Shown: one piece after another, positions 53,250 through 64,000 of the stretch | Numbering within the stretch: position 1 is the stretch's first letter | How the letters are laid out: every line of letters starts with the position of its first letter | From: Streptomyces sp. JJ38 | GTDB taxonomy: Bacteria > Actinomycetota > Actinomycetes > Streptomycetales > Streptomycetaceae | Reading direction: 5' to 3' | Assembly: GCF_019303475.1 (NCBI RefSeq) | Contig: NZ_JABLSI010000001.1 | Coordinates: 5,610-69,609, forward strand | Length of the DNA: 64,000 nt | Position numbers and translations under genes: made by a program | Notes under the pieces: model-generated | What the model was told of the DNA's origin: nothing | The model's database searches: none | Seen by the model: only the letters and a program-made list of their open reading frames with translations

Positions 53250-56200
53250 ATGCACGACGACAGCAGTCTGGTCGAAGCCCGCCTCCGCCGCGTGCTCACC
53301 GAGCGCGTCAAACCCCACGTCCACACCCGCGCGGTGCCGCTGGACATCGCCGTATGGCAGGCGCCCGGCGAACCCGTCCCCGTCGCCGAGGGGCTGGCGG
53401 CACCGTACGAGCCGACCGCCGCGGGCCGGGAGTGGGGCCCGGCCTGGGGCACCACCTGGTTCAGGGTCAGCGGCCGGGTGCCGCGGGAGTGGGCCGGCCG
53501 GACCGTCGAGGCCGTCCTCGACCTCGGCTTCGACCGCATGATGCCCGGATTCCAGTGCGAGGGCCTGGTGTTCCGGCCCGACGGCGAACCGGTCAAAGCC
53601 CTCAACCCGTACAACGACTGGGTGCGGGTGGCCGAACGGGCCCGCGGCGGGGAGGAGGTGGAGTACTTCGTCGAGGCCGCCTCCAACCCCGTGCTCGTCC
53701 ACCACCAGCCCACCTACGAGGGTGACCGGCTCACCGCCAGCGACCAGCCCCTGTACCGGCTCGCCCGCATGGACCTCACCGTCTTCGAGCCCGAGGTGTG
53801 GGAGCTCGTCCAGGACCTGGAGGTACTCGGCGCCCTCGTGGAGCAGCTCTCGCGGGGGGAGGCCCGGCGGCACGGCATCCTGCGCGCCGTCGAACGCTGT
53901 CTCGACGCCCTCGACCTCGCCGACGTCCCCGGTACCGCGGCCCGCGCCCGCGAGCGGCTGACCGGGGTGCTCGCCTCACCCGCGCACGCCTCGGCGCACC
54001 GCGTCAGCGCCGTCGGCCACGCCCACATCGACTCCGCCTGGCTGTGGCCGCTGCGCGAGACCGTGCGCAAGGTCGCCCGCACCTCGTCCAACATGGTCAA
54101 CCTCATGGAGGACCACGACGACCTCGTCTTCGCCATGTCGCAGGCCCAGCAGTTCGCCTGGCTCAAGGAGCACCGCCCCGAGGTCTACGCCAAGGTGTGC
54201 AAGCAGGTGGCGGCCGGGAGGTTCGTGCCGGTCGGCGGCATGTGGGTGGAGTCCGACACCAACATGGTCGGTGGCGAGGCCATGGCGCGGCAGTTCCTCT
54301 ACGGCAAGAAGTTCTTCCTCGACGAGTTCGGCATCGAGACCGAGGAGGTGTGGTTGCCCGACTCCTTCGGCTACACCGCGGCCCTGCCGCAACTCGTCAA
54401 GCTCTCCGGCGCCCGCTGGTTCCTGACGCAGAAGATCTCCTGGAGTCAGATCAACAAGTTCCCGCACCACACCTTCTGGTGGGAGGGCATCGACGGCACC
54501 CGCGTGTTCACCCACTTCCCGCCCATCGACACCTACAACTCCGACCTGGGCGGCGAGCAGCTCGCCCATGCCGCGCGCAACTACCAGGAGAAGGGGGCGG
54601 CCAGCCGCTCCCTGGCCCCCTTCGGCTGGGGCGACGGCGGTGGCGGGCCCACCCGCGAGATGCTCGCCCGCGCCCGGCGCACCCGGGACCTGGAGGGCTC
54701 ACCGCGGGTCGAGGTCGAAAGGCCGGGCGCCTTCTTCGAGAAGGCGCACTCCGAGTACCCGCACGCGCCGGTGTGGCAGGGCGAGCTGTATCTGGAGCTG
54801 CACCGCGGCACCTACACCTCGCAGGCCAAGACCAAACAGGGCAACCGGCGCAGCGAGTCCCTGCTGCGCGAGGCGGAGCTGTGGGCCGCCACCGCCGCCG
54901 TCCGGGTGCCCGGCCACCGCTATCCGCGGGCCGAGCTGGAGCGGATCTGGAAGACCGTCCTGCTGCACCAGTTCCACGACATCCTGCCCGGCTCCTCCAT
55001 CGCCTGGGTGCACCGCGAGGCCCGCGAGACCTACGCCCGGGTGCGGGAGGAGCTGACGGCGATCATCGACGCCGCACAGTCCGCGCTGGCCGGTGCCGGC
55101 GACCGGCCGATGGTGTTCAACGGCGCCCCGCACGCCCGCGGACCGCTCCCCGGCGGAGGAGCCGGCCCGGCGCCGGAGCCCACCGGGGCCCCGGTCACCG
55201 TCAGCGGCCGGGCGGACGGCGGCCACGTGCTGGACAACGGCCTGCTCAGGGTGGAGGTCGACGAGCGCGGGCTGATCGTCTCCGCCTTCGACCTCGCCTC
55301 CGGGCGCGAGGCCGTCGCCCCCGGGGCCGTGGCCGGCCTGCTCCAGCTCCACCCGGACTTCCCCAACATGTGGGACGCCTGGGACATCGACGCGTTCTAC
55401 CGCAACAACGTCACCGATCTGACCGGCGTGGACGAACTGGACCTCACCCACACCGGACCGGACCGCGCCACCGTCCGCGTGTCCCGTACCTTCGGCGACT
55501 CCTCGGTGGTGCAGACGGTCACGCTCCGGGCCGGTGCGCGGTCGGTGGACCTGGAGACCGAGGTCGACTGGCGGGAGACGGAGAAGTTCCTCAAGGCGGC
55601 CTTCCCCCTGGACGTGAAGGCCGACCGGTCCGCCGCCGAGACGCAGTTCGGGCACGTCTTCCGGGCCACCCACACCAACACCTCCTGGGAGGCCGCCAAG
55701 TTCGAGATCTGCGCGCACCGCTGGCTGCACGTCGAGGAGCCGGGCTGGGGCGCGGCCCTCGTCAACGACTCCACCTACGGACACGACGTCACCCGCGACA
55801 TCCGTCCCGACGGCGGCCAGACCACCACCGTGCGGCTCTCGCTGCTGCGCGCCCCGCGCTACCCCGACCCCGAGACCGACCACGGCACCCACCGACTGCG
55901 CTACGCGCTCGTCCCCGGGGCGAGCATCGGTGACGCCGTCCGGGAGGGCCATGCGATCAACCTCCCCGAGCGCACGGTCACCGGTTCCGGCGAACCCGTC
56001 GAACCGCTGGTGTCGGTGAGCGACGAGGGGGTCGTCGTCGAGACCGTCAAACTCGCCGAGGACGGCAGCGGCGACGTCGTCGCGCGGCTCTACGAGTCCC
56101 TCGGGAGCCGGGCGGCCGTGCGGCTGCGGCCCGGCTTCCCGGTGGCCGGGACGGCGGAGACCGACCTGCTGGAACGTCCCCTCGCCGAGGGCAGCGCCCT

Positions 56201-56282
56201 GAGCACCGGACCAGACGGCGGCCTGCGGGTGACGCTGCGGCCCTTCCAGATCGTGACGCTGAGGTTCCACGTGGCCGGCTGA
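53250..56282 (+). CDS. Cytoplasmic alpha-mannosidase (GH38)
   Basis: A 1010-residue retaining alpha-mannosidase. The zinc motif HAHID (His257, His259, Asp261) is in VGHAHIDSAWLWPLRETVRK and the nucleophile Asp371 in WLPDSFGYTAALPQ. Central helical and C-terminal beta domains (GLIVSAFDLASGREAV, DWRETEKFLKAAFPLDVKAD) are complete. There is no signal peptide, so it trims alpha-mannose from imported glycans. GGAGA precedes the ATG. It is the last gene of the operon and is followed by a hairpin. Confidence 0.94.
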   Translation: MHDDSSLVEARLRRVLTERVKPHVHTRAVPLDIAVWQAPGEPVPVAEGLAAPYEPTAAGREWGPAWGTTWFRVSGRVPREWAGRTVEAVLDLGFDRMMPGFQCEGLVFRPDGEPVKALNPYNDWVRVAERARGGEEVEYFVEAASNPVLVHHQPTYEGDRLTASDQPLYRLARMDLTVFEPEVWELVQDLEVLGALVEQLSRGEARRHGILRAVERCLDALDLADVPGTAARARERLTGVLASPAHASAHRVSAVGHAHIDSAWLWPLRETVRKVARTSSNMVNLMEDHDDLVFAMSQAQQFAWLKEHRPEVYAKVCKQVAAGRFVPVGGMWVESDTNMVGGEAMARQFLYGKKFFLDEFGIETEEVWLPDSFGYTAALPQLVKLSGARWFLTQKISWSQINKFPHHTFWWEGIDGTRVFTHFPPIDTYNSDLGGEQLAHAARNYQEKGAASRSLAPFGWGDGGGGPTREMLARARRTRDLEGSPRVEVERPGAFFEKAHSEYPHAPVWQGELYLELHRGTYTSQAKTKQGNRRSESLLREAELWAATAAVRVPGHRYPRAELERIWKTVLLHQFHDILPGSSIAWVHREARETYARVREELTAIIDAAQSALAGAGDRPMVFNGAPHARGPLPGGGAGPAPEPTGAPVTVSGRADGGHVLDNGLLRVEVDERGLIVSAFDLASGREAVAPGAVAGLLQLHPDFPNMWDAWDIDAFYRNNVTDLTGVDELDLTHTGPDRATVRVSRTFGDSSVVQTVTLRAGARSVDLETEVDWRETEKFLKAAFPLDVKADRSAAETQFGHVFRATHTNTSWEAAKFEICAHRWLHVEEPGWGAALVNDSTYGHDVTRDIRPDGGQTTTVRLSLLRAPRYPDPETDHGTHRLRYALVPGASIGDAVREGHAINLPERTVTGSGEPVEPLVSVSDEGVVVETVKLAEDGSGDVVARLYESLGSRAAVRLRPGFPVAGTAETDLLERPLAEGSALSTGPDGGLRVTLRPFQIVTLRFHVAG

Positions 56283-57380: not shown

Positions 57381-58646
57381 TCAACTCGCGCCGCGGCCCG
57401 TCAACGGTGGCGCGGGCCCGGTCCCGGCGGCCCGGGCCCGCGCGTGGGCCACGGCGGGGGAGTGGACGAACTCCCAGGCGACGTCGGCGAGCCAGGCCGC
57501 CTCGGCGTCGACGCGGTCGCGCCGCACCGGTATCGCCGGGGCGCTGGTGTGCCCCACCCGCTCGGCGGTGCGGGGCCTCCGCCGTCCCGTTCCCGCGCAC
57601 TCCAGGGCGACGGCGAGGGCCGCCGCCTCGGTGGCGGCGGCCCGGCGCTCCTCGGGCACCGGATGCCTGCGGAGGGCCTCGGCCGTCCACGCGGCGGTGT
57701 CGGGGTGGACGTAGGGGCGCAGGGCCAGGTACCCGTCCCGGATCTCGATCACCCGGCGGTACCGGGCGAACTCCACGCCCCGCCGCCGGGGCACCAGCAC
57801 CGCGCTCTCCGGCAGCACGCTCCACAGGGCCGACCACAGGGGCCGAAGCGCCCGGTGGTCGCGGTAGGCGCGCAGCCAGCGTGCCGGACGTTCGGTGAGC
57901 GGCCCCCAGCGCGCGGCCGTCGCGCCCAGCCCCGCCAGCAGCAGGCAGCACCCGCTGAGCAGCACCGAAACGGTGCTGTGGCCGACCGGCTGGGCTCCCG
58001 TGCCCAGCATGTCGACGATCGCGGTCACCCCCCAGGCGGCCCACAGCAGCCCGACCACCCCGCTGGCGACGAGCAACCGCAGCCCCGTGCGCAACGGGCC
58101 GGGTGGCAGGCCACGCGCGTGCTGCACGACGACGAGGACGAAGACGCACACGCACCACAGGCTGTACAGGGTGAAGACGGTGTTGGCGGCGGCGACGGCG
58201 TACCGCCCGGCGCCGTGCGCGTACACGTGCCCGTCCGCCGCCCGCGGGCGGGCGGCCAGGAAGCACACCGCACACACCACCAGCGCCGTGACGGTCAACC
58301 GGCCGTGCCCGCGTCCCGTCCACCGCTCCTCCCGGGTGACCGTCGGCCCGGACAGCCGCAGCTTGAAGACCGTCAGAACCAGGAAGTACAGCGCCACCAT
58401 CTTGAGCTCGCGGCCCAGCAGATGGGCCGGGGCGGTCAGCGAGGAGAAGGGGGCGGCGAGCCGGTCCAGGGCCTCGCCGGTGGGCGGGGCGAGGATCACC
58501 ACGGCCGCTCCCATGGCGAACCCGAAGCAGCAGAGCAGCCGCGCGGCCGGCCCCGTCCTGCCCTTGCGGATCTGCCGGAACTCGTAGCCGCTCACCCCGA
58601 TGGCGAGAAGCGCCGGCAGGTAGGGCAGCGTCTCGCCCGGCCCCAC
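57381..58646 (-). CDS. MAB_1171c-like multi-spanning membrane protein (DUF6545)
   Basis: A 421-residue protein with about seven transmembrane helices in the first ~230 residues. A soluble C-terminal part follows (YRDHRALRPLWSALWSVLPE, VEFARYRRVIEIRDGYLALRPYV), the pattern of the MAB_1171c family, annotated as putative transporters of unknown substrate. The GTG at 58646 is 5 bases after the stop of the metallopeptidase gene, so they form one operon. Such pairs recur in actinobacteria. The biochemical role is unknown. Confidence 0.75.
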   Translation of the reverse strand: MGPGETLPYLPALLAIGVSGYEFRQIRKGRTGPAARLLCCFGFAMGAAVVILAPPTGEALDRLAAPFSSLTAPAHLLGRELKMVALYFLVLTVFKLRLSGPTVTREERWTGRGHGRLTVTALVVCAVCFLAARPRAADGHVYAHGAGRYAVAAANTVFTLYSLWCVCVFVLVVVQHARGLPPGPLRTGLRLLVASGVVGLLWAAWGVTAIVDMLGTGAQPVGHSTVSVLLSGCCLLLAGLGATAARWGPLTERPARWLRAYRDHRALRPLWSALWSVLPESAVLVPRRRGVEFARYRRVIEIRDGYLALRPYVHPDTAAWTAEALRRHPVPEERRAAATEAAALAVALECAGTGRRRPRTAERVGHTSAPAIPVRRDRVDAEAAWLADVAWEFVHSPAVAHARARAAGTGPAPPLTGRGAS

Positions 58647-58651
58647 GGAGG

Positions 58652-59185
58652 TCAGTTCCCGTCCGGCCGGCGGACGGGTTCTCCGATCAGGGCCGCCGCC
58701 CGGGAGCGCCCCTGGCCGGGCGGCGGGGACACGGCGTCGTTGCGCAGCGCGCGGTAGCGCAGCAGCGAGGCGAGGACCTCGGCCTCCTGCTCGTGCGGCT
58801 CGCTGTAGCAGGTGCGTCCGAGCACCTGCCGCACGAGCGTCGGCGGCAGATGCGGGATCAGGATGCCGAGGGCCCCCGCGTCGGCGTCGGCCTCGCGGTC
58901 GTGGCCGAAGAGCAGGTGTGCCGCCTCGTGGAGCAGGATGTGTTCACGGTGCAGTGTGGTGGTGTCCCGCGTGCAGAGGATGTAGTCGGTGCCGCCGGTG
59001 GTCGCCAGCAGCCCGCAGGGAGCGGTGTGCGGGAGCGGGACGGGCAGGATCTCGATGGGCCGTCCGCGCCGCTCGGCCACGGACGCGATGAACGCGGTGG
59101 CGTCGAAGGGGCTGGGCAGGGGCAGGCTGTCGGCGATCCGGCCGGCCCGTCGCCATAAGCGCCTTTGCTGCCGAACGACGCGCAC
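58652..59185 (-). CDS. ImmA/IrrE-type zinc metallopeptidase
   Basis: A 177-residue protein with the gluzincin motif HEAAH in LLHEAAHLLFGHDREADADA; the downstream acidic residues can supply the third ligand. A conserved-type front domain (IEILPVPLPHTAPCGLLATTGGTDYILC) is also present. ImmA/IrrE proteases cleave DNA-binding repressors, but no XRE repressor partner is adjacent here. The GTG at 59185 has GAGAGGGG about 6 bases upstream. A good -10 (TATACT, minus strand) lies 112 bases upstream. It is coupled to the DUF6545 gene. Confidence 0.78.
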   Translation of the reverse strand: MRVVRQQRRLWRRAGRIADSLPLPSPFDATAFIASVAERRGRPIEILPVPLPHTAPCGLLATTGGTDYILCTRDTTTLHREHILLHEAAHLLFGHDREADADAGALGILIPHLPPTLVRQVLGRTCYSEPHEQEAEVLASLLRYRALRNDAVSPPPGQGRSRAAALIGEPVRRPDGN

Positions 59186-59444: not shown

Positions 59445-60803
59445 TTACGGCCGCTCCGCGGCCCGCGCTCGTCCCTCCGCCGGCCTCTCGGCGTTGCTCC
59501 CCTCCTCCTCGGGGCGGCCCGTGGCCCGCGCCTTCTCCTCGGCCGTCTCGGCGGCCCGCAGACGCCGCGCCGCCCGCAGCGCGGGGGGCACGGCGAGCGC
59601 GCTGACGGTCAGCTGGCCCAGGCCCAGGAGGAGCAGGGCCTCCCGCACCCCCGCCCACTGGCCCAGCATTCCGCCGGCCAGCGCCCCCAGGGCGTTGGCG
59701 CCCGCCACGAACACCTGGATCGCCGTCATCACCCGCCCCAGCTCGTCCTCGGCGGCGTCGAGCGTGAGGGCCGTGCCCATGCCCACGTTGGCGATCGCGC
59801 CGAAGAAGACCGGCAGCGAGACGCCCACCGCGGCGATGGCGGCGGCCAGCGGCAACGGGCCGAAGGCCAGCGGGAGCAGCAGGGTGGAGACCGCCGCGAG
59901 GCTGAAGGTGGCCACGGTGATCCGGCGTGCGTCGCTGCCGGGGCCCAGGAGGCGGCCTGCGACGACCGAGCCCCCGAGCCCGGCGAGCCCGGACAGGGCG
60001 AAGACGAGCCCGTAGGCCGATGTGGGAAGCCCGACCTCCCGCAGGAGGAAGAGGCCGGTGAGCGCCGTGAAGCCCGAGCTGCACAGGGCGGTGGAGACCA
60101 GGAAGACCGCAAGCGACCGTTGGTAGGCGTCGCCGAGGAAGAATTTCACCCCCGCCGCTCTCCGCTCCCGGCCCCGCCTCTGGGCCGTGGGCCTGGCCCG
60201 GGCGGCGTCCGGTGCCCGCATCGACACCAGGGCCAGGGCGCTGAGCAGATAGCTGAGGGTGTCCACGGCCAGGGCCGCCTCGCCGCCGAACACGGCCACG
60301 GCCGGGCCCGCCAGTGAACGGCCGACCAGGGAGGCGCCGAACTTGCCGGACTGCAGGCGGGCCCGGGCCGGCCCGATCTGGTCCCGGTCGACCAGCTCGC
60401 GCAGGTGCACGAAGAACAGGGCCCCGGACACCGTGCCGAGGAGCGCGCGCACCGCGCTCAGAGCGGCGAGCCACAGGAGGGAGACGGCGTCCACCACCAG
60501 GCCCAGGGCGACGACGCCCACCGCCGCCGCGGAGAGCAGGTCCATGATGACCAGTGCGCGACGGGGGCGGGCGATCCGGTCCGCGAACGTGCCCAGGGGC
60601 AGGCCGAAGAGCAGCACGGGCAGGATGCCGGAGGCGGTGAGCAGGCCCGCCTCGGCCGCCGACACGTTCAACTGGACGACGGCGATGAGGGGGAAGGCGA
60701 CCGCGGTGAAGTAGGAACCGAAGGCGGAGGTGGTCTGGCCCCACCAGTACAAGCTGACATCACGCCGCACGGCGGTCACTCCAGGACGTGTCGTACCGGT
60801 CAT
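59445..60803 (-). CDS. MFS efflux protein of the lanthipeptide operon
   Basis: A 452-residue major facilitator with about 12 helices (MFS_3/drug-efflux subfamily): YWWGQTTSAFGSYFTAVAFPL, LLFGLPLGTFADRIARPRRALVIMDLLSA and LGRVMTAIQVFVAGANALGAL. The C-terminal ~45 residues are charged and Ala/Arg/Glu-rich. The ATG overlaps the LanKC stop by 4 bases (ATGA), so expression is coupled to the synthetase. It is the likely exporter or self-resistance pump for the lanthipeptide. Class III clusters more often carry RamAB-type ABC genes, none of which is seen here. Confidence 0.85.
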   Translation of the reverse strand: MTGTTRPGVTAVRRDVSLYWWGQTTSAFGSYFTAVAFPLIAVVQLNVSAAEAGLLTASGILPVLLFGLPLGTFADRIARPRRALVIMDLLSAAAVGVVALGLVVDAVSLLWLAALSAVRALLGTVSGALFFVHLRELVDRDQIGPARARLQSGKFGASLVGRSLAGPAVAVFGGEAALAVDTLSYLLSALALVSMRAPDAARARPTAQRRGRERRAAGVKFFLGDAYQRSLAVFLVSTALCSSGFTALTGLFLLREVGLPTSAYGLVFALSGLAGLGGSVVAGRLLGPGSDARRITVATFSLAAVSTLLLPLAFGPLPLAAAIAAVGVSLPVFFGAIANVGMGTALTLDAAEDELGRVMTAIQVFVAGANALGALAGGMLGQWAGVREALLLLGLGQLTVSALAVPPALRAARRLRAAETAEEKARATGRPEEEGSNAERPAEGRARAAERP

Positions 60804-63445
60804 GCCGGTGTGGGCGCGGGCCGGGCGGCGAGCGCGTCCACGGTGAACAGGGCGTCGGGCTCGGGGTCGAGCAGGTCGGACAGGAACAGCAGCACTCCGG
60901 CCGAGCCGCTGAACAGCTCCGCGCTGTAGCGCAGCGACTGGTCACCCAGCACCCGGACGCCGGTGGGATGCGGGATCACGTACTTGAACAGGGCGCGCCC
61001 GATGCGGACGGCGTCGCGACGGCTCTCCTGGTCCCCGGTCAGTGCCGCGTGCTCGGCCAGTGCGAAGCCCCGGCCCGCCAGCCCCTGGTACAGGCCCGGC
61101 ATGACGGTGAACGGGAGACGCAGCGGGGCGAGCAGTCTGGGCAGTGCCTCGGCGAGTCGGTCGTCGTCCAGCACGCTTAGGTACCGGGTGACGGTGTGCA
61201 CCATGCCGGCCGAGCCGCAGGAGAGGTAGGCCATCCTGCGGCTGTCGGACGCCGAGACGGGGAAGGTCAGCGTCGGCGCGTCGGGGTCGCAGGCGCGGTC
61301 GAGTTCCGCGTGCAGCAGCCGCAGTCCGCGCGCGAGATGGCTCGTGTCCCCCGTGACCGCGGCCAGCTGCTGGAGCATCAGCGCGATGCCGCACCGGCCG
61401 TGCAGGAGGCCCGTGGCGTCGTCCGGGCCGAGGAGTGGCCGCAGGAGGGCGTCCGGCGGGAGCTCGGCGGCGATCGCGAGTGCCCGGTCGAGATGGCGGG
61501 GGTCACCGGTGTGGCCGTGGACGGCCAGGTGGGCCATGGCCACACCGGCGGCGCCGCCGAACAGCGTGGCGCACTCGCGGGTGAGGGGGTGGCGGTCGGC
61601 ACGGCCCAGCAGGTCGACGGCCTCGGTGAGCATGCCGTGGTCGGCGAGTACGCGGGCGATACCGGCGGCCCCGGCGTACAGGCCGGGGGGCAGGTTCGCG
61701 GCGGCCAGGGCGTCCTTGCGCAACCGTTCCAGCACGCCGTCGGGCGCGGGCCGGCCGGCGCGGCGCAGCGCGTGGAGCACGCCGGCCGCGCCGTAGGCGA
61801 CGCACAGGGTGTTGAGCGCGTACCCCTCCATGACGGTGGGGAACATGCGGGTCGCGTGGTCGGCGTCGGCCATGGCGACGAGTGCGTCGGCGACGCCGTC
61901 CCGCAGGTCGGCGAGGTGCCGCTCGGGTTCGAGCGCGACCTCGTCCGGGCCGGGCAGCTCGGCGGTGCCCCGCGGCCGGTCGTAGCGGGTGGCGCGGTCC
62001 CACAGCGGCTTCGGCACCGGGGCGTAGCGGGACAGTTCGTGGTGCTGGTGGGCGAGGACGTGCGGGTTGCGCCGGGCCTCGTGCCGCAGGGGCCCGAGCA
62101 GGAGGTGGGTCAGGGCGGAGACGCCGTAGTCGTCCTTGACCGCGGGGTCGTCCACGGCCATGCCGGGCGGTGGCGTGTATCCGGGGGTGCCCACCGAGGA
62201 CGGCGGCTCGTCGACGGAACGGGCGGCTCCGAAGTCCACCAGGCGGGCCTGGTCGTCCTCGTCCACGAGAACGTTCCCGGGGCTGACGTCGCCGAAGCGG
62301 TAACCGACCGCGTGCAGACGCTCGATCGCCCGCTCGACCGCCGAGATGATCCGCAGGCACCGCTGGTAGTAGCGGCGCAGCTCCTCCCGGTGGACAGGGG
62401 GCGACAGCAGCGGGTGGGCGGTGTTGAGCCAGCGCGACAGAGGGACGCCGGGCACCAGCTCGGTCACCATGAAGTGGTGCTCCCAGACCTGGAAGACGTC
62501 CAGGGGTTCGGGGGCCAGCCCCGGGGCGAGCGCGTGGAGGCGGCGCAGGGTCTCCCACTCCCGCCGCAGGTTCTCCGGTGCCGTGCTGCCGTCTTCCAGG
62601 ACTCCGCAGTGCGCCCGGGCCTCCTTGACGAACACCGTCCTGCCCGTGGACGTCTCCCGGCCCCGGTAGGTGCCCCCGGCGTTGCTGAAGCGGATCGCCT
62701 CCTCGAAGGCGAAGCCGTTGAAGACCGAAGGCCCGTCGGCGCCCGCTCCCTCGGAAGCCGCCGCCCGGGCGTTTCCCCCATCGGCCGCCGCGGTCTGCCG
62801 CCCGGAACCGCTGCCTTGGTGCGTCACGAACGGGTCGGTGATGCCCTCGGGGAGGTGGAACTCCACGCCGCGGCGGTCCTCGACCAGCCTGCCGTGCCCG
62901 TCACGGACCAGGGAGACGGACGTCCCGTCCCCCCGCGTCCGGGGACGGTGGACGAAGGCCCCGTACCGGTAGTGCACGGTGCGGGACGTTCCGAAGCGCC
63001 GGTCGGTGAGGATGAAGGGGCCTTCCTCACCGTCCAGTTCCTCGCTCAGCCGCTCCATCAGCCCGCGGGCCGTCGGCACGTCGGGCGGGTAGGCGGCGAT
63101 GAACTTCCCGTTCTGGGCGCGGGAACCGTGGGGGTAGTGGGTACACAGGTGGAACAGCCGGCTGGCGAGGTGCTTGAAGGGGACCGCGTGGGCGAAGCAC
63201 ACCCGGGCCGTCGTGTCGAGCACCCGGGCGAGGCGGTCGGGCCGGGCCGACACGTGCACCTTCCAGCCGTCCTCGACGCCCCCGAGCCCGTCGCGATGCC
63301 AGACGGTCCACAGCCCCGACGGACGGCTGCGCCACCCGTCGGGTATCCGGGCGGGCCGGAACAGCTCGCCCTGGTCCGTGCAGGTTTCCAGCGGCGCGTA
63401 GAACTCCGGGTCCGCGACGATGTACCCGGAGGGGTTCTTCCTCAT
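60800..63445 (-). CDS. Class III lanthipeptide synthetase LanKC
   Basis: An 881-residue three-domain enzyme that phosphorylates Ser/Thr of a precursor, eliminates phosphate and cyclises. The N-terminal lyase domain (about 1-235) contains SRLFHLCTHYPHGSRAQNGKFIAAYP and RFGTSRTVHYRYGAF. The kinase domain (about 240-520) has the nucleotide Lys274 (VFVKEAR), catalytic loop GDVSPGNVLV (Asp386, Asn391) and DFG at 404-406. The C-terminal LanC-like domain (about 530-870) keeps GxxG repeats (GLYAGAAGIA, LFGGAAGVAMAHL, LSCGSAGMVHT, GLYQGLAGRGFAL) but not the zinc ligands, as the Cys and Cys-His positions read S and Y-Q. That is the hallmark of class III rather than class IV. The gene lies between the precursor gene and the MFS gene. 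Confidence 0.92.
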   Translation of the reverse strand: MRKNPSGYIVADPEFYAPLETCTDQGELFRPARIPDGWRSRPSGLWTVWHRDGLGGVEDGWKVHVSARPDRLARVLDTTARVCFAHAVPFKHLASRLFHLCTHYPHGSRAQNGKFIAAYPPDVPTARGLMERLSEELDGEEGPFILTDRRFGTSRTVHYRYGAFVHRPRTRGDGTSVSLVRDGHGRLVEDRRGVEFHLPEGITDPFVTHQGSGSGRQTAAADGGNARAAASEGAGADGPSVFNGFAFEEAIRFSNAGGTYRGRETSTGRTVFVKEARAHCGVLEDGSTAPENLRREWETLRRLHALAPGLAPEPLDVFQVWEHHFMVTELVPGVPLSRWLNTAHPLLSPPVHREELRRYYQRCLRIISAVERAIERLHAVGYRFGDVSPGNVLVDEDDQARLVDFGAARSVDEPPSSVGTPGYTPPPGMAVDDPAVKDDYGVSALTHLLLGPLRHEARRNPHVLAHQHHELSRYAPVPKPLWDRATRYDRPRGTAELPGPDEVALEPERHLADLRDGVADALVAMADADHATRMFPTVMEGYALNTLCVAYGAAGVLHALRRAGRPAPDGVLERLRKDALAAANLPPGLYAGAAGIARVLADHGMLTEAVDLLGRADRHPLTRECATLFGGAAGVAMAHLAVHGHTGDPRHLDRALAIAAELPPDALLRPLLGPDDATGLLHGRCGIALMLQQLAAVTGDTSHLARGLRLLHAELDRACDPDAPTLTFPVSASDSRRMAYLSCGSAGMVHTVTRYLSVLDDDRLAEALPRLLAPLRLPFTVMPGLYQGLAGRGFALAEHAALTGDQESRRDAVRIGRALFKYVIPHPTGVRVLGDQSLRYSAELFSGSAGVLLFLSDLLDPEPDALFTVDALAARPAPTPA

Positions 63446-63516: not shown

Positions 63517-63554
63517 GGTGCCGGTGTGGCCGCCGCGGCGGCCACACCGGCACC
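63517..63554. terminator. Perfect 38-bp palindrome between lanA and lanKC (attenuator)
   Basis: Arms at 63517-63535 and 63536-63554 are exact reverse complements (19 bp each, no spacer; arm GGTGCCGGTGTGGCCGCCG). On the minus strand it begins 10 bases after the precursor stop and ends 72 bases before the LanKC start. An RNA hairpin here would partly stop transcription or protect the precursor message, giving more peptide than enzyme. Confidence 0.8.
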
Positions 63555-63563
63555 CTGTGCGCT

Positions 63564-63725
63564 TCAGCAGAGGAGCAGGCTGACGTCGCTGTTGCCCGCG
63601 GGGTCCTCGATCTTCTCGCCCTCCATGCCCTGGAGGTTGCGGACCGAGTGGGCCTCCACCTCGGCCTCTTCCTCCTGCGGCGCGGCCTGCGGCTCCTCGG
63701 GCTTCGGCTCGTTGACGTCCGACAT
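63564..63725 (-). CDS. Class III lanthipeptide precursor with a single SxxSxxxC ring motif
   Basis: A 53-residue peptide. The N-terminus is acidic and Pro/Glu-rich (MSDVNEPKPEEPQAAPQEEE). A leader motif SVRNLQGMEGEKIEDPAG follows, resembling the LQxME of RamS/AmfS leaders, and the peptide ends NSDVSLLLC. The last eight residues S-D-V-S-L-L-L-C form one SxxSxxxC motif for labionin or lanthionine formation, identical in spacing to the first ring of SapB, and the Cys is the final residue. AAGGGAG sits about 7 bases before the ATG. It is the first gene of the lanKC-MFS operon. Only one ring is possible, whereas SapB has two. The mature N-terminus and cleaving protease are unknown. Confidence 0.88.
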   Translation of the reverse strand: MSDVNEPKPEEPQAAPQEEEAEVEAHSVRNLQGMEGEKIEDPAGNSDVSLLLC

Positions 63726-64000
63726 ACCGGATCTCCCTTCTCATCGGGGGGTGACGGAGGCCGTGCCCGGCTTCCGTCCGTGCTCCGAAGCTAGGGCGGG
63801 GGGATTCGACAGCGGCTTGGCGACGGTATGGCCCCGGTATCCCCGCCAGGCCAGGAACGTGCGAGAGGCCCTTGACGCTCCGTGCCGCTGAGGCGACGTC
63901 AAGTTCCCCGGCACGACCGCGGGTTGATGACTGGCGCGGAGCCAGTCAATGTCCTAGGCTCACTGTGGGTACATAAGCTGAAATGAATGATCTTGTGAGA
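63726..64000. promoter_or_regulatory. Upstream control region of the lanthipeptide operon
   Basis: This 275-base region holds CGGTAT direct repeats 11 bases apart (63824-63829, 63835-63840), a typical response-regulator spacing. It also holds an inverted repeat CTTGACG-N19-CGTCAAG (63871-63877, 63897-63903) and a perfect 8-bp hairpin TGACTGGC / GCCAGTCA with a 5-base loop (63928-63948). No strong -35/-10 pair was identified for the minus strand. Confidence 0.4.
63983..64000 (+). CDS. Possible start of a divergent gene, cut by the window end
   Basis: ATG at 63983 opens MNDLVR and runs off the window. TACATA (63970-63975) ends 7 bases upstream, similar to the leaderless starts elsewhere in this window. 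Only six codons are visible, so this is a guess. A regulator of the lanthipeptide operon would be a natural occupant. Confidence 0.2.

What the first reader, a model, noticed from the sequence alone, without database searches (positions are those of the whole stretch)
63564..63725. Minimal one-ring SapB-like class III lanthipeptide precursor ending on the ring Cys
Seen: a 53-codon gene with a strong RBS directly before lanKC. Its C-terminus is exactly one SxxSxxxC motif (SDVSLLLC) with no residue after the Cys, preceded by an LQxME leader motif like RamS/AmfS. Known: SapB and most RamS-type peptides have two such motifs. Inference: the product is a single-labionin (or lanthionine) peptide of perhaps 8-12 residues, a stripped-down morphogen or signal. 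The strongly acidic ~25-residue N-terminal leader extension is also unlike short RamS leaders.
Basis: partly seen in the sequence, partly recalled or inferred. Interest (0 to 1): 0.85.

Follow-up and report, generated by a model that had tools for sequence, protein, structure and literature searches.

The report
One-ring lanthipeptide from a swappable-cargo cluster
A 53-residue Streptomyces gene ends in a single ring motif and is predicted to be made into a one-ring class III lanthipeptide; it belongs to an unnamed family whose gene clusters in most relatives also carry a second small peptide and a protease that likely cuts both at the same short motif, which matters because much of the same gene set is found beside several unrelated peptide types.

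Summary
In detail: 63564-63725 (-) encodes a 53-residue precursor ending exactly on SDVSLLLC, followed by an intact-looking LanKC and an MFS transporter. It is not the strain's SapB, whose two-ring RamS lies elsewhere in the genome. A profile search found 30 such proteins; 29 end in one SxxSx(2-3)C motif and all 30 carry EVxAH. The one-ring LanKCs form one supported clade. Just outside the window lies a cassette: SARP regulator, radical SAM enzyme, haem-oxygenase-like iron enzyme, a second precursor ending EVxAH-xExAGGALF, cyclase/ATPase, S8 protease, GAF protein. The two precursors lie within 15 kb in 35 of 45 genomes. Much of the cassette, with EVxAH, recurs beside other cargo (CxSxxS lanthipeptides, radical-SAM multicore peptides and others). 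The S8 gene is in 15 of 15 motif-bearing genomes tested and, at similar identity, in 0 of 20 controls. Best reading: a one-ring labionin/lanthionine peptide released by S8 cleavage at EVxAH under SARP control; ring, cleavage and role are untested. Single-labionin class III peptides are known (andalusicin, noursin), so the ring is a variant; the shared cassette is the surprise.

The parts
63564..63725 (-). lanA: one-ring class III lanthipeptide precursor, 53 aa
63567..63590 (-). core ring motif SDVSLLLC (residues 46-53), ends on the ring Cys
   Evidence: sequence; one SxxSx(2-3)C at or near the C-terminus in 29 of 30 family proteins
63621..63635 (-). LQGME: predicted LanKC leader-recognition motif (residues 31-35)
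   Evidence: LQ in 30 of 30 family proteins (in P0032 it stands apart and may be chance); a LELQL motif is critical for ThurKC (passage of PMC10604976)
63648..63662 (-). EVEAH: predicted S8 protease recognition/cut motif (residues 22-26)
   Evidence: EVxAH-type motif in 30 of 30 family proteins and in 120 of 120 listed AGGALF precursors; before each core of multicore precursors; S8 co-occurrence
63733..63740 (-). ribosome binding site (GAAGGGAG)
   Evidence: sequence
63813..63840 (-). three 11-bp-spaced direct repeats (ATACCG/ATACCG/AAGCCG), predicted SARP operator
   Evidence: only TACCG-N6-TACCG in the window, 0.01 expected; 10 or more of 12 positions kept in 26 of 30 upstream regions
63788..63793 (-). 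TAGCTT, predicted -10 box
   Evidence: similar hexamers at a like distance from the repeats in most relatives (by eye)
63517..63554 (-). 17-bp perfect hairpin between lanA and lanKC
   Evidence: z -3.85; long hairpins of other sequence in most of the seven loci measured
60800..63445 (-). lanKC, class III lanthionine synthetase, 881 aa
59445..60803 (-). MFS transporter, probable exporter
   Evidence: follows LanKC in 14 of 14 distinct one-ring loci
58652..59185 (-). 177-aa protein with no Pfam or NCBIfam match, present in part of the loci
57381..58646 (-). MAB_1171c family putative transporter (DUF6545), present in part of the loci
63983..64000 (+). first codons of the divergent SARP/AfsR-like regulator; the rest of the cassette lies outside the window (G000:C30:69592-78154: SARP, radical SAM, PF14518 enzyme, AGGALF precursor 73418-73633, cyclase/ATPase, S8, GAF)

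Best explanation
This 53-codon gene encodes a precursor with one C-terminal SxxSxxxC motif and is predicted to yield a one-ring class III lanthipeptide, likely dehydrated and cyclised by the adjacent LanKC, likely released by the cluster's S8 protease at the EVEAH motif and likely exported by the MFS transporter. Shown by sequence: the precursor, its one-ring family, the LanKC clade, the recurring cassette, the shared EVxAH motif, the repeat-bearing upstream region and the co-occurrence of the S8 gene. Inferred: (1) the divergent SARP activates lanA through the 11-bp direct repeats; (2) LanKC binds the LQ motif and makes a labionin or lanthionine from Ser46, Ser49 and Cys53; (3) the S8 protease cuts at EVxAH both here and in the second, AGGALF-ending precursor, perhaps followed by aminopeptidase trimming; (4) the hairpin after lanA keeps the precursor more abundant than the synthetase. 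The radical SAM and PF14518 enzymes most likely act on the AGGALF peptide, not on the lanthipeptide. The peptide's biological role is unknown; a secreted signal or competition peptide, not SapB, is the working guess.
For: Class III synthetase; kinase Lys, GDVSPGNVLV and DFG read by eye. Family: (29 of 30 end SxxSx(2-3)C plus 0-4 residues, 26 of 30 have one Cys, 30 of 30 have EVxAH). One-ring LanKCs form a clade, 100/99 support. Cassette in relatives. AGGALF precursor within 15 kb of an EVxAH precursor-profile hit in 35 of 45 genomes; present in 37 of 45 against 22 of 349. EVxAH-type motifs stand before each core in multicore cargo precursors and 1-3 residues before the ring motif in permuted one-ring precursors of G445 (five), G480 (two), G463 (two) and G335 (one). 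S8 gene in 15 of 15 genomes with such precursors, 0 of 20 controls at comparable identity; triad readable. AmyP, a known class III S8 protease, has a (T/S/A)EVE motif (PMC10885120 passage); here the stretch reads AEVEAH. Seven genomes lack an intact radical SAM-PF14518-AGGALF trio at the locus yet keep lanthipeptide precursor, LanKC and S8: G335, G447, G483, G506, G528, G556 and G567. Upstream repeats; SARP operators are 11-bp repeats (PMC5930380 passages).
Against: No product, transcript or cleavage has been observed. In the window's precursor EVEAH lies before LQ, so a cut there would leave LQGME in the product unless more trimming follows; 29 of 30 family proteins have that order, and the spacing is 9-11 in 28 of 30, so EVxAH might be part of LanKC binding instead. 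The precursor scores below the curated lanthipeptide cut-offs. All 20 S8 controls are from the window's genus while 13 of the 15 positives are from other genera, so kinship is only partly controlled (one search adds S8 at ten loci of the window's genus, window included). G460's and G489's one-ring loci have no S8 in the stretch read, only elsewhere in the genome. The hairpin z-score is beyond -2 in 3 of 7 loci measured.
Confidence: 0.72

Rival explanations
1. It is a reduced SapB/AmfS-type morphogen that helps aerial growth.
For: Weak matches to SapB/AmfS (20.9 bits) and RamS (19.5 bits) models over the leader LQ and first ring; SLLLC is shared with the genome's own RamS.
Against: Both scores are under the cut-offs (25 and 24.3). 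The genome has a full two-ring RamS precursor beside another LanKC. MFS instead of an ABC pair (RamAB recalled); different regulator and a second RiPP in the cluster. Relatives' cores differ (STVSLGEC, SNISVALC, STVSLAACA).
Confidence: 0.07
2. The radical SAM and PF14518 enzymes tailor the lanthipeptide itself, so the product is a hybrid RiPP.
For: They stand in the same cluster in many relatives, with promoter-like repeats before the radical SAM gene in 7 of 13 distinct loci; both precursors carry EVxAH.
Against: A dedicated precursor (AGGALF) follows the PF14518 gene directly; the trio persists beside cargo with no LanKC in the stretch read; seven genomes keep lanthipeptide genes without an intact trio.
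Confidence: 0.13
3. EVxAH is not a cut site but a docking element (for LanKC, a transporter or a chaperone); the leader is removed by an unclustered M1 or S9 peptidase as in other class III peptides.
For: EVxAH-LQ spacing is nearly constant; unclustered proteases are common for class III (PMC10885120 passages).
Against: EVxAH-type motifs also occur in precursors with no LanKC nearby, once per core in multicore precursors, and track the S8 gene.
Confidence: 0.2
4. It is a lipolanthine-like peptide: the C-terminal Cys is decarboxylated to an avionin and the N-terminus acylated.
For: A C-terminal Cys in a single labionin motif is the lipolanthine pattern (recalled; PMC11251773 passages name lipolanthines as single-Cys).
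Against: No flavoprotein decarboxylase (PF02441) on the window's contig; the three in the genome lie on other contigs. Of 29 relatives with the motif, 14 have residues after the ring Cys.
Confidence: 0.03

Closest known systems
SapB/AmfS (RamS) class III lanthipeptides
   Same: LanKC synthetase, LQ leader motif, first ring motif SxxSLLLC
   Different: one ring not two; EVxAH leader; MFS exporter; own SapB elsewhere in the genome; SARP, S8 and second RiPP in the cluster
Andalusicin (ThurA1/ThurKC, Bacillus thuringiensis; passages of PMC10604976)
   Same: class III, a labionin ring formed with a terminal Cys
   Different: 11 dehydrations, methylated N-terminus, seven nearly identical precursors, M16 proteases outside the cluster, Firmicutes
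Noursin (NorA/NorKC; passages of PMC10206099)
   Same: Streptomyces class III, single Cys, one labionin, LELQEL leader
   Different: wider ring spacing and a His-to-butyrine crosslink; the window core has no His and exact SxxSxxxC spacing; S9 peptidase
'Reverse labionin' subfamily C, CxSxxS (PMC11251773, passages)
   Same: single-Cys Streptomyces peptides with class III synthetases; the CxSxxS peptides found here share the EVEAH-LxLQ leader and most of the cassette
   Different: motif order inverted; LanKC only about 32-34% identical. That these are the same peptides as subfamily C is my inference from the motif
S8 protease AmyP of a Bacillus amyloliquefaciens class III system (PMC10885120, passage)
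   Same: S8 protease for a class III leader with a (T/S/A)EVE motif
   Different: Bacillus; here the motif is EVxAH and is shared with non-lanthipeptide precursors
NCBIfam NF045560 'aroma-sacti cluster domain' precursors
   Same: the cluster's second precursor matches it above cut-off (51.4 bits, cut-off 30)
   Different: the model's name points to sactipeptides; here it sits with lanthipeptides too, with a nearly invariant AGGALF end

Membership tests
Class III lanthipeptide | LanKC synthetase (lyase, kinase, cyclase) beside the precursor | tested here: met
   NF038151 706.9 bits over 575, residues 8-855; PF25816, PF00069, PF05147; absence of zinc ligands not checked
Class III lanthipeptide | LQ leader motif and SxxSx(2-5)C core | tested here: met
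   LQGME and SDVSLLLC; conserved
Class III lanthipeptide | lanthionine or labionin in the product | not testable with these tools
   needs mass spectrometry
SapB/AmfS family | match over curated cut-off | tested here: not met
   NF033212 20.9 of 25; PF19402 19.5 of 24.3
SapB/AmfS family | two ring motifs | tested here: not met
   one motif; the genome's own RamS has two
Lipolanthine | LanD-type flavoprotein in the cluster | tested here: not met
   no PF02441 on contig C30
Lipolanthine | acyl-chain (PKS/FAS) genes in the cluster | not tested
   neighbouring genes named are of other kinds, but the contig was not searched for such genes
Noursin-type (LanKC-Hbt) | core His for the histidinobutyrine bridge | tested here: not met
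   no His after residue 26
EVxAH one-ring family (this work) | EVxAH, LQ and terminal SxxSx(2-3)C, LanKC in the one-ring clade | tested here: met
aroma-sacti cluster | NF045560-type precursor in the cluster | tested here: met
   outside the window at G000:C30:73418-73633

The most novel reading that the evidence does not exclude
The one-ring lanthipeptide is one cargo of a class-independent RiPP chassis: a recurring set of S8 protease, cyclase/ATPase, GAF protein, usually a SARP regulator and an invariant radical-SAM/iron-enzyme-made peptide (AGGALF) that carries interchangeable cargo peptides (forward and reverse labionin lanthipeptides, radical-SAM multicore peptides, JmjC- or methyltransferase-linked peptides), wired in by the same EVxAH cut site and often the same promoter repeats; the constant AGGALF product would be a shared signal or cofactor.
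Probability: 0.42. Interest if true: 0.87.

Novelty: new variant of a known kind. Interest (0 to 1): 0.7.

Why it matters
It describes a one-ring class III family whose window member falls under the cut-offs of the curated lanthipeptide models, and ties it to a recurring gene set that appears to serve several RiPP classes through one leader motif. If the S8 protease really cuts at EVxAH in lanthipeptide, radical-SAM and other precursors alike, that would be a ready-made, class-independent leader peptidase, useful for RiPP engineering, and the constant AGGALF peptide would be a new small-molecule lead with an unknown role.

Tried and rejected
Rejected: SapB identity (own RamS found); lipolanthine; noursin type (no core His); chance ORF. 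Direct searches with the 53-mer alone found little: one relative besides itself in the 5.8-billion-protein set, none in genome contigs; the genus search (105 of 392 genomes at E 1 or better) gave one clear new locus (G361) and, lower down, matches that later proved to be CxSxxS relatives (L005, L008, L009, L013-L015, L018) among many unrelated ones. A profile of seven precursors opened the family. Pfam and NCBIfam gave no name for the 177-aa neighbour. Paper searches (open-licence PMC only) found no paper with both EVEAH and lanthipeptide, none with 'single labionin' and lanthipeptide, and none with aroma-sacti or AGGALF; they do not cover most subscription journals, and no supplement was read. 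Structure prediction, RNA model building and Rfam were not used.

Rows dropped and limits of the counts: L033/L095, L034/L099 and L035/L105 are the same records (equal contig lengths) and count once per genome. One search listed 120 of 473 hits, the best scoring, found with a query that already had EVxAH and AGGALF, so 120 of 120 is not an unbiased rate. In one search the 59 AGGALF genomes are those whose hit reaches profile position 71; weaker partial hits were dropped. The 45 genomes are profile hits; reading later showed that G414's precursor has no LanKC in the 10 kb read and is other cargo, and that one of G463's two copies has none either. G499 counts as lacking AGGALF although the protein set holds one from Streptomyces sp. 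CBMA29 (P0138), the record that G499's contig matches, so that absence is probably fragmentation. For one search I chose the 36 genomes: 15 with EVxAH LanKC-type precursors (LanKC itself read in 14; G487 only the precursor), G113, and 20 that appear without hits.

Full report
What is there. The minus strand at 63564-63725 encodes MSDVNEPKPEEPQAAPQEEEAEVEAHSVRNLQGMEGEKIEDPAGNSDVSLLLC, ending on the ring Cys. A ribosome binding site precedes it and lanKC starts 118 nt after its stop. The 881-aa LanKC passes the curated class III cut-off (706.9 of 575 bits), has lyase, kinase and cyclase domains and matches solved class III synthetases. An MFS transporter overlaps its end. The precursor matches the SapB/AmfS and RamS models weakly, under both cut-offs (20.9 of 25; 19.5 of 24.3 bits).

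It is a family. The 53-mer alone found one relative (76% identical by BLASTP, SNVSLLLC end). LanKC relatives in named genomes (five loci) include three with similar precursors (L033, L034, L035); in L036 the contig starts just before lanKC, and L037 showed none. A profile of seven sequences found 30 proteins at E 0.1 or better, the window's own included; the names shown are hypothetical or uncharacterised protein, from Streptomyces, Actinacidiphila or Kitasatospora. Of these 30, 29 end in SxxSxxxC (24) or SxxSxxC (5) followed by 0 to 4 residues, 26 have a single Cys, and all 30 have LQ and an EVxAH-type motif. In NCBIfam, 20 of 28 aligned members touch the SapB/AmfS model at E 1 or better; the best E-value, 2e-4, is about that of the window's member, which is under the cut-off. 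In a tree of 44 LanKCs the 13 rows marked one-ring and G335's fall in one clade of 14 (100/99). The nearest outside rows have two-Cys precursors (L043/L106 and L044).

It is not the strain's SapB. The genome has two more LanKCs; beside one lies MTLLDLQTMETVKDEAMGDTAHGSEASLLLCGDSSLSVTTC, a classic two-ring RamS.

The surroundings. Beyond the window's end, on the plus strand, follow an AfsR-like SARP regulator (BTAD 134.5 bits), a radical SAM protein, a haem-oxygenase-like iron enzyme (PF14518, 55.3 bits), a 71-aa second precursor ending DDEVQAHCEVAGGALF (NF045560 'aroma-sacti cluster domain', 51.4 of 30 bits), a guanylate-cyclase/AAA protein, an S8 peptidase (99.8 bits; nearest curated names mycosin and QhpE, below cut-off) and a GAF protein (found by similarity; the GAF name comes from its L107 relative). 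Of 14 distinct one-ring loci, all 14 have MFS after LanKC, 9 have the radical SAM gene over most of its length and 8 the PF14518 gene and the AGGALF precursor in the stretch read; G335 has a decayed radical SAM gene and neither of the others; G460 and G489 lack them nearby; three loci lie on short contigs or at a contig end.

A second core type shares the cassette. A 28-row profile run over 394 Streptomycetaceae genomes hit 45 at E 0.001. Many hits have the same kind of leader (MSENT..EVEAHSVLDLQ) but an inverted core (CVSVLS and the like), as in the 'reverse labionin' CxSxxS subfamily C of PMC11251773 (passages read). Their LanKC passes the class III cut-off (two tested) but is only 32-34% identical to the window's and lies on another deep branch, while SARP, radical SAM, PF14518 enzyme and cyclase/ATPase are 50-62% identical where present. 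A third type ends SCSSCxGS[LF]C (G435, G693, G487, G476). G414's hit is other cargo: no LanKC in the 10 kb read.

Two precursors, linked. The AGGALF profile hit 87 of the same 394 genomes; counting only hits that reach the AGGALF end, 59 genomes. It is present in 37 of the 45 genomes against 22 of the other 349, and within 15 kb in 35 of 45. In 120 listed AGGALF proteins (of 473 hits) the EVxAH motif stands exactly 9 residues from the end (query-biased). The link is not absolute: six genomes with CxSxxS precursors (G447, G483, G506, G528, G556, G567) have no AGGALF hit, and the radical SAM and PF14518 genes are missing from the stretch between precursor and cyclase/ATPase, while S8 is present.

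Other cargo. Of the 22 genomes with AGGALF but no hit I read 13 loci (L120-L132). All 13 hold radical SAM, PF14518, cyclase/ATPase, S8 and GAF genes; 8 of 13 have a SARP in the stretch. Two have LanKC after all: L120 (CxSxxS) and L125 (G445), the latter with five tandem precursors in which EVxAH-type motifs come 1-3 residues before the ring motif. The same permuted order is seen in G480 (two), G463 (two) and G335. Others have different cargo: L123, L124, L128 and L129 encode multicore precursors in which cores such as DEDTPWCVINTGT follow EVVAH or DVVAH, beside a radical SAM/SPASM maturase in the two checked (L123, L124); L121 has a precursor near radical SAM and methyltransferase genes; L122 one near a JmjC protein; L126 one near a DUF6895 protein and a glycosyltransferase-like one. 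In L130 and L131 no other EVxAH precursor was seen near the AGGALF one. Several cargo precursors begin like the lanthipeptide ones (MAENTEPT, MSENTQPT).

The EVxAH motif and the S8 protease. The motif's place before cores in unrelated cargo fits a leader-core boundary. The S8 gene was sought in 36 genomes: 15 of 15 with an EVxAH LanKC-type precursor have it (66-74% identity, E 5e-118 or lower), including all 8 that lacked an AGGALF hit; 0 of 20 genomes without either hit have it at that level (three weak 35% matches); G113, a two-Cys LanKC relative, has none. All controls are from the window's genus and 13 of the 15 positives are not, so kinship is only partly controlled; one search adds S8 at ten loci of the window's genus. 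Its Asp, His and Ser can be read in VVDSG, CGHGT and GNSFATP (by eye). A passage of PMC10885120 gives a (T/S/A)EVE motif for the S8 protease AmyP of a Bacillus class III system; the window leader reads AEVEAH. Against this, EVEAH lies before LQ here, as in 29 of 30 family proteins, at a spacing of 9-11 in 28 of 30, so further trimming would be needed, as in other class III peptides with endo- plus aminopeptidase processing (same source), or the motif may serve LanKC binding.

Promoter and hairpin. The upstream region has three repeats at 11-bp spacing, 63813-63840, and a TAGCTT hexamer at 63788-63793. TACCG-N6-TACCG occurs once in the 64-kb window, 0.01 expected. Over 30 upstream regions, 26 score 10 or more of 12 against the repeat pair: 21 of 21 LanKC loci and 5 of 9 others; the four that fall short are matched by shuffles in 10-84 of 300. 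A weaker pair lies before the radical SAM gene in 7 of 13 distinct loci. SARP operators are 11-bp repeats (passages of PMC5930380), so SARP control is a fair inference, untested. Between lanA and lanKC a 17-bp hairpin folds at z -3.85; of seven loci measured three have z beyond -2, and in five others my script found no LanKC start.

What is known. Single-labionin class III peptides exist: andalusicin with a terminal Cys (passages of PMC10604976) and noursin (PMC10206099 passages). PMC11251773 predicts 179 single-Cys peptides (passages). Durhapeptin and SapB/AmfS have two rings (PMC13380574 passages). Hence the ring itself is a variant of a known kind; what I did not find in print, within the searches named, is the EVxAH leader, the family, or the shared cassette.

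How it probably works. SARP turns on lanA; LanKC, docked on LQ, dehydrates Ser46 and Ser49 and closes the ring on Cys53; the S8 protease cuts at EVEAH, further trimming follows, and the MFS protein exports the peptide. The radical SAM and PF14518 enzymes most likely modify the AGGALF peptide. All these steps are inferred.

Noticed in passing
G000:C30:73418-73633 (L002:13418-13633), outside the window: Second RiPP precursor ending AGGALF beside radical SAM and PF14518 enzymes; the AGGALF end is kept in all 120 listed relatives (of 473 hits), which hints at a constant product such as a signal or cofactor.
   Followed up: partly
L129:12354-13298, L123:12183, L124:12029, L128: Multicore precursors with EVVAH/DVVAH before repeated cores (DEDTPWCVINTGT, GEDTPSWCIVHSAPDA), about a dozen copies in G503, next to a radical SAM/SPASM maturase in the two loci checked (L123, L124).
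   Followed up: partly
L125:14161-15404: G445 has five tandem class III precursors with EVxAH-type motifs directly before one-ring cores, beside a LanKC 56% identical to the window's; G480 (L144) and G463 (L141) have the same permuted order.
   Followed up: partly
L098: G335 carries a decayed radical SAM gene (cluster Cys motif not readable), no PF14518 hit and no AGGALF precursor in the stretch, but intact-looking lanthipeptide genes; its precursor has DVLAH after LQ, right before the core.
   Followed up: partly
L140:3472-4074: G463 has a second one-ring precursor copy (ending SSVSLAACAMEPF) with no LanKC in the 10 kb read, far from its twin in L141.
   Followed up: no
L034:7781-8068: A further class III-like precursor (NF038154 22.3 of 22 bits) downstream of the one-ring cluster of Streptomyces sp. 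CBMA29.
   Followed up: no
L114:4020-4145 (G000:C23): The strain's own two-ring RamS/SapB precursor beside another LanKC; a third LanKC lies on G000:C107 with no precursor recognised by my motif filter.
   Followed up: partly
window 53250-56282 (+): GH38 alpha-mannosidase near the cluster; no sign that it belongs to it.
   Followed up: no
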